From assembly GCA_947584595.1 (NCBI GenBank), contig CANPWP010000001.1:1-64000 (forward strand): a stretch of DNA of 64,000 nt, read 5' to 3'. Source of the stretch: an uncultured Clostridia bacterium (GTDB lineage Bacteria; Bacillota; Clostridia; Oscillospirales; Acutalibacteraceae). Below the pieces are notes generated by a model. The model was not told the DNA's origin. It searched no databases and saw nothing but the letters and a program-made list of their open reading frames with translations. Below are positions 12,316-56,896 of this stretch, piece by piece; position 1 is the first letter of the stretch; each line of letters opens with the position of its first letter. The translations under genes and the position numbers were made by a program.

Positions 12316-12627
12316 GTAAACCATTTAAATGCGATGAAAAGGAAAAGTAGCAGAGTTTCTGCCATCAGAGAGGAACACATTTGCTGTGAGTGTTCTTGGT
12401 AAGTATTCTGTGAAATGCACCTTGGAGCTTGCAGGGGGAATTTTACACCAGGTTCTGATTGAATAGGTATAAGATTTAAAGTTTATTTTTCCTGTTTAAT
12501 CAGAAAAATATCAGTATCTCTGTACGTATTACCTGCGTTAAAGGTATTAAAGAGCAGTAAAATTTTACTGCTGAATTTGGGTGGAACCACGACTGCGTCG
12601 TCCCTTTCGGGATGGCGCTTTTTATTT
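12316..12627 (+). promoter_or_regulatory. T-box riboswitch, probably cysteine-specific
   Basis: The leader contains the conserved T-box sequence GGGTGGAACCACG (about 12579-12591) and ends in an intrinsic terminator: GCGTCGTCCC, loop TTTC, GGGATGGCGC (12595-12618), then a T run. The likely specifier codon is TGC at 12416-12418, in GTGAAATGCACC, which reads cysteine. Uncharged tRNA-Cys would stabilise the antiterminator and turn on cysE and cysS, matching the downstream genes. Confidence 0.93.
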
Positions 12628-14884: not shown

Positions 14885-15700
14885 ATGAAACTTTTTATAA
14901 TAACCAAACGTACTATTATTTGCTTAACAATTTGCCTTTTTGCTGCGGTGCTTGCAGGAGTTATATCCTTAGGAGCAGTTGCGCAAACGACAGAAACTGC
15001 CGCCGAAACAAGAGAAATTCCTATTTACTGCGTTGATACTCAGGAAAAGAAGGTCGCTATATCTTTTGACGCCGCTTGGGGCAACGAACAAACAGAACAG
15101 CTTTTAGATATCTTAGATAAATATAATGTTAAAGCCACATTCTTTTTAGTAGGACAATGGGTTGATAAATATCCCGACTCTGTAAAAGAAATTGCCAAAA
15201 GAGGTCATGATGTAGAAAATCATAGTAATACCCACGCATATATGACGCAGCTTTCGGAGTCTGAAATGAATACTGAAATTACCGAATGCAACAAGAAAAT
15301 TGAAACATTAACAGGTAAATGTCCTACTTTGTTTAGAGCTCCTTACGGAGATTACAATAATCCTGTTGTAAAATCAGTTAAAGAGAATAATATGTACTGT
15401 ATTCAATGGGACGTTGATTCTCTTGACTGGAAAGACCCCAGCCCTCAGCAAATAGTTAAGAATATTACAGATAAAATAGATTGCGGAAGTATTATACTTA
15501 TGCACAACGGAGCAACAAACACACCTGAGGCACTGCCCACTGTTATTGAATCAATACAGGCTGCGGGATATAAAATTGTACCAATTTCAAAAATCATACC
15601 GCAGGGAGAATATACAATTGATGCAAACGGTATGATGCATATTACATCAGGAGAAAGTTCTGAAAGCACAAAACAAACAGAACCAACAACCAATAACTAA
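14885..15700 (+). CDS. Secreted or membrane-anchored polysaccharide deacetylase
   Basis: The 271-residue protein has an N-terminal hydrophobic segment (about 10-33) and a NodB-fold deacetylase domain of carbohydrate esterase family 4, resembling PdaA/PdaB of spore-formers. Motif 1 is SFDAAWG near residue 60: the first Asp (catalytic base) is kept and the second, metal-binding Asp is Ala, as in several PdaB-like proteins. The HSNTH metal motif, RAPYGDYN and LMHN are intact. It probably acts on peptidoglycan or another cell-surface glycan. The 3' end encodes a Ser/Thr-rich tail. The ribosome binding site is GGGGGGA, which can pair with CCCC upstream. Confidence 0.85.
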   Translation: MKLFIITKRTIICLTICLFAAVLAGVISLGAVAQTTETAAETREIPIYCVDTQEKKVAISFDAAWGNEQTEQLLDILDKYNVKATFFLVGQWVDKYPDSVKEIAKRGHDVENHSNTHAYMTQLSESEMNTEITECNKKIETLTGKCPTLFRAPYGDYNNPVVKSVKENNMYCIQWDVDSLDWKDPSPQQIVKNITDKIDCGSIILMHNGATNTPEALPTVIESIQAAGYKIVPISKIIPQGEYTIDANGMMHITSGESSESTKQTEPTTNN

Positions 15701-15820: not shown

Positions 15821-15849
15821 TTGACAAATGTTAAGTAATTTAATATAAT
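15821..15849 (+). promoter_or_regulatory. Consensus sigma-A promoter with no gene behind it
   Basis: TTGACA (15821-15826), exactly 17 bases, TATAAT (15844-15849): both hexamers are perfect. No ORF of normal size follows for more than 800 bases on this strand, which suggests a noncoding transcript. Confidence 0.8.
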
Positions 15850-15855
15850 ATTAAC

Positions 15856-16062
15856 AAAGAAAGGAGAAATCCTCCTAAATTAATTAAGCAGGTGAGTCCA
15901 ATGAGATAATAACTTAAACGGTTATTTTTTCGGAAAGATTTTAAGCATAATTGTTGATACTTAATTCACGGCACATAATGTGCAAATATAAATATTAAAA
16001 AGAAATGTAAGTAATACAAGCTAAAAATATTCTTTCCATCTCTCCGAGAATGTCCCTTTAAA
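15856..16062 (+). ncRNA. Candidate structured noncoding RNA (6S-like rod)
   Basis: Downstream of the consensus promoter the sequence folds on itself. GGAAAGA (15932-15938) pairs with TCTTTCC (16031-16037), TTAAGC with GCTAAA, TTGT and TACTTA (15951-15963) with TAAGTA and ACAA (16008-16019), and GCACAT/ATGTGC caps the rod at 15971-15983. A GAAA-loop mini-hairpin (AGGA/TCCT) stands near the 5' end. An SD-like AGGTGA precedes a three-codon ORF, ATG AGA TAA, at 15901. The long bulged rod recalls 6S RNA, but I cannot match a family. The ends are guesses. Confidence 0.45.
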
Positions 16063-16391
16063 ATTATAAGCTAAAATGTAATTTTAATTGTATGCGTATA
16101 ATTTATTCCTTACAACTTCGGTGCTTAGCACTTATTACTTTTTATTCTGACAATAAATTTTAAATTTATAACAAAATTGATTTTTCTTATATTTGTAATG
16201 TTTTTACATTGGAATAAATTACTATTCAAAATCTTATATTGATGAGCAAATACGGCATTACGGATCTCTCTAATAATGCTAATAAAAACAACTTAATAAA
16301 TATATAAAAATTTAATATAAGTAATATAAATTATAATTGTATTTTATTTAAAGCAACCGATTTAAAAACGATTCCATATATTACCTAACCA

Positions 16392-16423
16392 AAAGAGCGT
16401 ATATCATAAGATATGCGCTCTTT
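16392..16423. terminator. Strong bidirectional hairpin in the gene-free region
   Basis: A 14-bp stem (AAAGAGCGTATATC and GATATGCGCTCTTT, one G-U pair) closes a 4-base ATAA loop. Short T runs follow on both strands. It could end the plus-strand noncoding transcript. The stretch 16063-16391 otherwise shows only AT-rich sequence and a small GTGC/GCAC hairpin near 16122. Confidence 0.6.
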
Positions 16424-16446
16424 GCTTTTGAAAAAGTATTTTGCTA

Positions 16447-41665: not shown

Positions 41666-41694
41666 ATTATAGGTATTTTAAATAATTATGTCAA
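41666..41694 (-). promoter_or_regulatory. Consensus promoter of greA-lysS
   Basis: On the minus strand: TTGACA (41689-41694), 17 bases, TATAAT (41666-41671); both hexamers are perfect. The -35 overlaps the last codons of the preceding 275-residue gene. Confidence 0.85.
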
Positions 41695-56667: not shown

Positions 56668-56896
56668 TTTCTTTGAACAACTCCTAAATAAAAGTTGCTA
56701 AACTCCTGAAATAAAGGCTACCCAACTTCTAAAAATCCAAATTATTCTTTTCAAATTATACAATAAAGTAAAAATTGTGTCAACAAAGCTTCAAACATAA
56801 AGCAATAACTATTACTGCTGTAAAATACAAACGAACAAAAGCAAAATTTGTTTTATCCGTATTTAATAACTTTATTTTATCTATTTTATCACAAGA

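What the first reader, a model, noticed from the sequence alone, without database searches (positions are those of the whole stretch)
15821..16062. Consensus promoter driving an orphan structured RNA
A perfect TTGACA-17-TATAAT promoter is followed by no gene. Instead the next 200 bases fold into a long bulged rod: at least four separated segments on one side pair in order with four on the other, and a GCACAT/ATGTGC hairpin caps it. A 6S-like regulatory RNA would look like this, and I saw no other 6S gene in the window. It does not clearly match any riboswitch or RNA family I know, so it may be new.
Basis: partly seen in the sequence, partly recalled or inferred. Interest (0 to 1): 0.7.

Follow-up and report, generated by a model that had tools for sequence, protein, structure and literature searches.

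The report
Structured RNA with start–stop micro-ORF
A gut bacterium carries an undescribed, independently transcribed folded RNA that is not 6S RNA; it contains a ribosome-binding site leading to a one-to-two-codon reading frame that stops at once, and related RNAs in other Clostridia carry up to five such start–stop frames, suggesting RNAs that engage ribosomes without making protein.

Summary
A perfect TTGACA-17-TATAAT promoter (15821-15849) is followed by no gene but by an RNA whose bulged rod (15932-16037, GCACA/TGTGC cap) is conserved in 5 of 161 species of the genus. All five copies found sit downstream of the same PdaB-like gene. On a model-fitted alignment, 15 of 46 pairs change on both sides (0-4 when partners are slid). 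The RNA continues past 16062, probably to a hairpin at 16392-16423 (about 570 nt).

It is not 6S: Rfam gives nothing here, and the genome has a proper 6S elsewhere (78.7 bits).

The best conserved unstructured part is AGGTGAGTCCRATG-AGA-(N)-stop: a Shine-Dalgarno-like site before a 2-3 codon micro-ORF. Scattered RNAs across Clostridia share this box in 1-5 tandem copies. Among 21 boxes not constrained by my search patterns, 15 stop in frame within three codons (4 and 1 in the other frames; background 6/85), using TAA, TAG and TGA. The boxes can also pair bipartitely with the 16S 3' tail.

Most likely this is an undescribed RNA group that engages ribosomes through futile start-stop translation. 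That mechanism is inferred. Main rivals: the box is a protein- or RNA-binding motif, or a relic leader.

The parts
15821..15849 (+). consensus promoter TTGACA-17-TATAAT; promoter plus leader conserved in 5 orthologues and resembling promoters of other box RNAs (L005, L006)
   Evidence: only one other site with up to 3 mismatches to the extended promoter/leader in the own genome
15862..15876 (+). P1: 5' hairpin AGGAG-AAATC-CTCCT holding an SD-like GGAG in a stem
   Evidence: paired in all five orthologues, register shifted in G003
15890..15912 (+). box: AGGTGAGTCCA + micro-ORF ATG AGA TAA (TAA); relatives read ATG AGA AAA/CAA TAA
   Evidence: invariant GGTGAGTCCRATGAGANAATAA in five orthologues; same box in other RNAs
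15908..15926 (+). P2: hairpin starting at the micro-ORF stop codon
   Evidence: same helix made of different sequence in G074 and G151
15932..16037 (+). bulged rod: P3 15932-15938/16031-16037, P4 15944-15946/16020-16022, P5 15951-15954/16016-16019, P6 15958-15963/16008-16013
   Evidence: compensatory changes, e.g. P5 TTGT/ACAA to TTGC/GCAA
15971..15983 (+). P7: invariant cap hairpin GCACA-tAA-TGTGC
16092..16140 (+). second conserved block with GTGC-NNN-GCAC hairpin (present in G009 and G151, absent in the shorter G003 RNA)
16367..16390 (+). invariant 3' block AACGATTCCATATATTACCTAACC
   Evidence: identical in W, G009, G003, G151
16392..16423 (+). probable terminator hairpin between convergent transcripts (weak T tract; 3' end inferred)
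   Evidence: stem AAAGAGCGTATATC/GATATGCGCTCTTT, replaced compensatorily in G009 and G151; not called by the simple scan

Best explanation
The element is an independently transcribed, structured RNA of about 570 nt (shown: promoter, conserved position, covarying rod; inferred: transcription and 3' end). It belongs, by its box and partly by its promoter and leader, to an undescribed and loosely defined group of Clostridial RNAs whose hallmark is one to five start-stop micro-ORFs: a Shine-Dalgarno-like GG(T/A), a conserved GTCCR, ATG, zero to two sense codons and a stop. The proposed mechanism is inferred. A 30S subunit docks through two-part pairing with the 3' tail of 16S rRNA (SD with CACCUCCUUU, GUCCA with UGGAU). 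It starts on AUG, reads one or two codons and terminates at once at the foot of hairpin P2. Ribosomes are therefore repeatedly engaged without making a protein. The RNA would act in trans as a ribosome-engaging or translation-sensing regulatory RNA, with the rod and its invariant cap hairpin as the second functional module.
For: Structure. The model finds exactly 5 of 161 genus genomes, one copy each, and in all five it lies at the same locus. Start-stop box: of 21 boxes not constrained by the search patterns, 15 have an in-frame stop within three codons versus 4 and 1 in the two other frames. Background GG..CCNATG sites give 6 of 85, binomial p about 2e-13. All three stop codons are used (41 TAA, 9 TAG, 2 TGA), which favours reading as codons over a plain sequence motif. 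Tandem copies with independent codons: L067/G405 MNK* MNE* MNG* MRK*, L074/G220, L058/G110, L070/G436 with a TGA stop. The 16S tail of two complete genomes of the genus is GGCTGGATCACCTCCTTTCT. Boxes pair with it at a mean of -13.2 kcal/mol versus -10.7 for 46 window genes with their best start. The W orthologues keep ATG AGA (N) TAA in all five species.
Against: No expression or ribosome-profiling data could be consulted. Several boxes next to the 3' end of related RNAs keep GAGTCCAAAG without an ATG (L058, L056, L005, L085, L086), so at least those are not micro-ORFs. GTCC is more conserved than a ribosome-binding site requires, and its pairing with 16S could be coincidence. The W element has only one clear box; its homology to the multi-box RNAs rests on the box, the promoter/leader similarity (E 1.7e-8 and 2.3e-8 in a pairwise comparison) and a weak model match in L044 (E 0.028). 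The box is only partly unpaired in predicted folds. The covariation alignment was fitted to the model.
Confidence: 0.45

Rival explanations
1. The box GGNNNNAGTCCRAKG is a binding motif for a protein or another RNA, and the RNAs are sponges in the manner of CsrB/RsmZ; the apparent start and stop codons are part of the motif.
For: GAGTCCAAAG copies without ATG are conserved in several species; GTCC conserved beyond need; repeats per RNA vary from 1 to 5.
Against: In-frame stops use three different codons, and out-of-frame stops are rare. GGA, the CsrA core, is replaced by GGT in many copies including the window's.
Confidence: 0.22
2. It is a leader or attenuator, or a relic of one: a micro-ORF coupled to a hairpin or terminator that controls a downstream gene.
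For: The same box stands in front of secreted-protein genes at L072, L073 and L084, and before a terminator and lipoprotein gene at L089.
Against: In the window the next gene is convergent. The flanks of most multi-box RNAs share no common downstream gene in the loci read.
Confidence: 0.15
3. Ribosome binding at the box merely protects the RNA from decay (5' stabiliser), and the function lies only in the rod.
For: Box lies near the 5' end; the rod covaries.
Against: Other RNAs carry tandem boxes and boxes near the 3' end, which a 5' stabiliser does not need.
Confidence: 0.12
4. It is a 6S or second 6S RNA that mimics an open promoter.
For: Size and a bulged rod.
Against: No 6S match at E<=10; a bona fide 6S gene exists elsewhere in the genome; the rod has no large central bubble, and an invariant micro-ORF box precedes it.
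Confidence: 0.03

Closest known systems
6S RNA (Rfam RF00013)
   Same: Free-standing transcript with a long bulged rod
   Different: No Rfam match here; separate 6S gene in the genome; micro-ORF box and extra hairpins; probably ~570 nt
phage lambda bar minigenes (two-codon frames; own knowledge)
   Same: Very short frame directly behind a ribosome-binding site
   Different: Here inside dedicated non-coding transcripts, often in tandem, with a conserved GTCCR before ATG and attached RNA structure
Start-stop upstream ORFs of eukaryotes such as AUGUAA in plant NIP5;1 (own knowledge)
   Same: Start codon followed at once by a stop, ribosome held without peptide
   Different: Eukaryotic cis elements in mRNA leaders; here bacterial, SD-dependent, mostly in stand-alone RNAs
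Dual-function sRNAs such as RNAIII (own knowledge)
   Same: Related RNAs L005, L006, L056, L058 carry a 22-32 aa 5' ORF plus a long non-coding part
   Different: The window RNA has no such ORF; the repeated unit is a tri-codon frame
CsrB/RsmZ sponge RNAs (own knowledge)
   Same: One short motif repeated in a stand-alone RNA
   Different: Motif is GG(T/A)-GTCC-ATG-stop rather than ANGGA in loops; reading frame kept

Membership tests
6S RNA (RF00013) | Covariance-model match to Rfam 6S | tested here: not met
   No match at gathering score or E<=10; control: 6S found elsewhere in the same genome at 78.7 bits
6S RNA (RF00013) | Large central bubble mimicking an open promoter | tested here: not met
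   Consensus structure has only small internal loops between P3-P6 and an invariant cap hairpin
6S RNA (RF00013) | Binds sigma-A RNA polymerase and templates pRNA | not testable with these tools
   needs a bench assay
Any Rfam 15 family | Match above gathering score | tested here: not met
   for the window; for related loci gave only chance, neighbouring 6S or tRNA matches
CsrB/RsmZ type sponge | Several GGA motifs in loops or single strands | tested here: not met
   Window box is AGGTGA, single clear copy; many copies elsewhere read GGT
Start-stop micro-ORF RNA group (proposed here) | SD-like site + GTCCR + ATG + 0-2 codons + stop | tested here: met
   15890-15912; ATG AGA (N) TAA in all five orthologues
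Start-stop micro-ORF RNA group (proposed here) | Own promoter and no encoded protein | tested here: met
Start-stop micro-ORF RNA group (proposed here) | Tandem copies of the box (common, but not in single-box members such as L064) | tested here: not met
   One clear box in the window RNA; only a degenerate candidate near the 3' end
Start-stop micro-ORF RNA group (proposed here) | Translation of the micro-ORF | not testable with these tools
   needs ribosome profiling

The most novel reading that the evidence does not exclude
A new class of bacterial regulatory RNA, scattered through the Clostridia, that captures ribosomes: each RNA carries one or several modules that pair with the whole 3' tail of 16S rRNA and drive futile start-stop translation, so that the RNA titrates or senses ribosomes while a covarying structured domain carries out a second step.
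Probability: 0.3. Interest if true: 0.85.

Novelty: new variant of a known kind. Interest (0 to 1): 0.6.

Why it matters
Stand-alone RNAs whose conserved element is a start codon followed almost at once by a stop are not described in Rfam or in the papers I could search. If the micro-ORFs are used, they would be a natural RNA-based way to hold or count ribosomes in common gut bacteria, and would show that AUG-stop frames can be selected in bacteria outside mRNA leaders. The five-species alignment and the ready list of multi-box relatives make it testable by ribosome profiling.

Tried and rejected
6S membership. Rfam scans of related loci at relaxed thresholds gave only chance hits, plus true 6S genes near L044 and L061 and tRNAs near L052. 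Viral contigs: no exact match to the window box; a generic box pattern gave two contigs, one apparently inside coding sequence, the other not resolved. Box hits L082, L083, L065, L066 and probably L092 lie inside coding sequence and were discarded; L055 is coding as well. L004 and L007-L010 are short chance matches. 16S was not found in the window's own assembly, so the tail was taken from two complete genomes of the genus. Paper searches found no description of tandem start-stop frames in bacterial RNAs, but only open-licence papers were searched. The idea that the box is fully single-stranded was not borne out by folding.

Full report
OBSERVATION. The promoter at 15821-15849 matches TTGACA-17-TATAAT in all twelve positions. 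Exact matches occur three times in the window against 0.07 expected. The upstream gene is a PdaB-like polysaccharide deacetylase ending at 15700 (226.6 bits to TIGR02764, just under its cut-off of 237.4); the next gene, gpmI, is convergent. There is no gene between them on either strand that the ORF list would suggest. Folding the single sequence gives z -2.1, with 6 of 200 shuffles as good, so on its own the fold is not convincing.

RELATIVES. A DNA search of 59 genomes found two close copies (85% and 80% identity). Searching the genus for the deacetylase and reading downstream of it for the 30 best matches gave two more at the same locus (G074, G151), five species with the window's own. A covariance model built from the three closest sequences finds exactly these five among 161 genomes of the genus, once each, with G074 and G151 at 74.2 and 70.6 bits.

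STRUCTURE. On the model-fitted alignment of the five, 93.3% of cells are paired, 15 of 46 pairs have a change on both sides, and none of 500 shuffles reaches any of the five measures; sliding the partners by 1-3 columns gives 33.5-46.1% paired and 0-4 double changes. Fitting biases this upward, but helices written out by hand show the same: P2 is AATAAC/GTTATT, TTTAGT/ACTAAA or TAATAT/ATATTA in different species, P4 AGC/GCT or ATT/AAT, P5 TTGT/ACAA or TTGC/GCAA. MFE z-scores of single sequences range from -0.6 to -3.2, so the comparative evidence is what counts.

EXTENT. Conservation does not stop at 16062. A block at 16092-16140 with a GTGC/GCAC hairpin recurs in G009 and G151. AACGATTCCATATATTACCTAACC at 16367-16390 is identical in four species and is followed by a long hairpin with compensatory changes. 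The RNA therefore probably ends near 16425. In G003 the middle is missing and the RNA would be about 280 nt. The 3' end is inferred; the simple terminator scan does not call this hairpin because its T tract is weak.

NOT 6S. Rfam gives no match here at the gathering score or at E<=10, and the genome has a clear 6S gene on another contig.

THE BOX. The most conserved unstructured stretch in the five orthologues is GGTGAGTCCRATGAGANAATAA. It reads as a Shine-Dalgarno-like site followed by ATG AGA TAA in the window and ATG AGA AAA TAA or ATG AGA CAA TAA in the relatives. An exact search of 84,980 species genomes found it again in a Ruminococcus MAG (L044), inside a different ~640-nt intergenic RNA with its own promoter and three further copies of the GAGTCC motif, not all with a start codon. 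Pattern searches of the genus, order, family and class found many more. They look like at least two groups: one with GAGTCC boxes and, in four genus members (L005, L006, L056, L058), a 22-32 aa first ORF containing RSLPPN; another with GGTACAGTCCAATG boxes and a last tiny ORF (MLDIKSEQK-like) that overlaps the terminator. The most extreme (L067, L074) carry four or five frames in a row, such as MNK*, MNE*, MNG*, MRK*. Most hits were found through a pattern that already demanded a stop, so I counted separately the boxes that do not satisfy those patterns.

IS IT TRANSLATED? Of 21 such boxes, 15 have an in-frame stop within three codons after ATG, against 4 and 1 in the other two frames. Ordinary GG..CCNATG sites in the sequence held give 6 of 85. 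Stops are TAA, TAG and TGA. This pattern is expected of a reading frame and not of a plain sequence motif. Against it, a recurrent variant near the 3' ends reads GAGTCCAAAG with no start codon (L005, L056, L058, L085, L086), so the box must also have a role, or a past role, that needs no start.

16S PAIRING. The 16S tail in two complete genomes of the genus is GGCTGGATCACCTCCTTTCT. The box pairs with it in two parts: the SD with CACCUCCUUU and GUCCA with UGGAU. In the window this is AGGUGA, one bulged G, then UCCA. Mean duplex energy is -13.2 kcal/mol for 36 boxes against -10.7 for 46 window genes allowed their best start. This is suggestive only; a five-base match next to an SD can arise by chance.

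MECHANISM. Shown: conserved promoter, box and covarying rod. Strongly suggested: the box is selected as a start-stop frame in the wider group. Inferred: ribosomes start and stop there without making a protein, and the RNA acts in trans by engaging ribosomes or sensing translation. Rival readings (binding-motif sponge, leader relic, RNA stabiliser) are not excluded. The claim that the window RNA and the multi-box RNAs form one family is moderate: they share the box, a promoter/leader similarity (E 1.7e-8 and 2.3e-8), and in L044 the hairpin and GGAAAGA that follow the box, with only a weak model match (E 0.028).

NOVELTY. No Rfam family matches any of the RNAs, and the paper searches found no description, though the library covers only open-licence papers. 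I rate the window RNA as a new variant of a known kind (an orphan structured small RNA with a micro-ORF), and keep the stronger reading, a new class of ribosome-engaging RNAs, as the novel case.

Noticed in passing
window 12325-12608 (+): T-box leader (125.6 bits) directly before a serine acetyltransferase-like gene and a cysteinyl-tRNA synthetase-like gene, presumably amino-acid responsive.
   Followed up: no
L005, L006, L056, L058: Box RNAs of the same genus begin with a strong SD and a 22-32 aa ORF with IKD(F/Y)xRSLPPN; third-codon-position changes suggest it is really coding, and PPN may favour ribosome stalling.
   Followed up: partly
L051, L052, L063, L064, L071, L090, L096, L097: A second group of RNAs: one or two boxes just after the promoter, 200-600 nt without long ORFs, then a tiny ORF like MLDIKSEQK whose end overlaps the terminator stem.
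   Followed up: partly
L044 and L061: In two genera the box RNA sits near a 6S RNA gene and a DUF1292-like gene, which may be a shared synteny.
   Followed up: no
L072, L073, L084, L089: Single micro-ORF boxes stand in the leaders of secreted-protein or lipoprotein genes.
   Followed up: no
L103 14380-14404: A box with a promoter-like sequence lies on a viral contig of IMG/VR; whether it is phage or host flank was not resolved.
   Followed up: no
window 41666-41694 (-) and 56755-56783 (-): Two further perfect TTGACA-17-TATAAT promoters.
   Followed up: no
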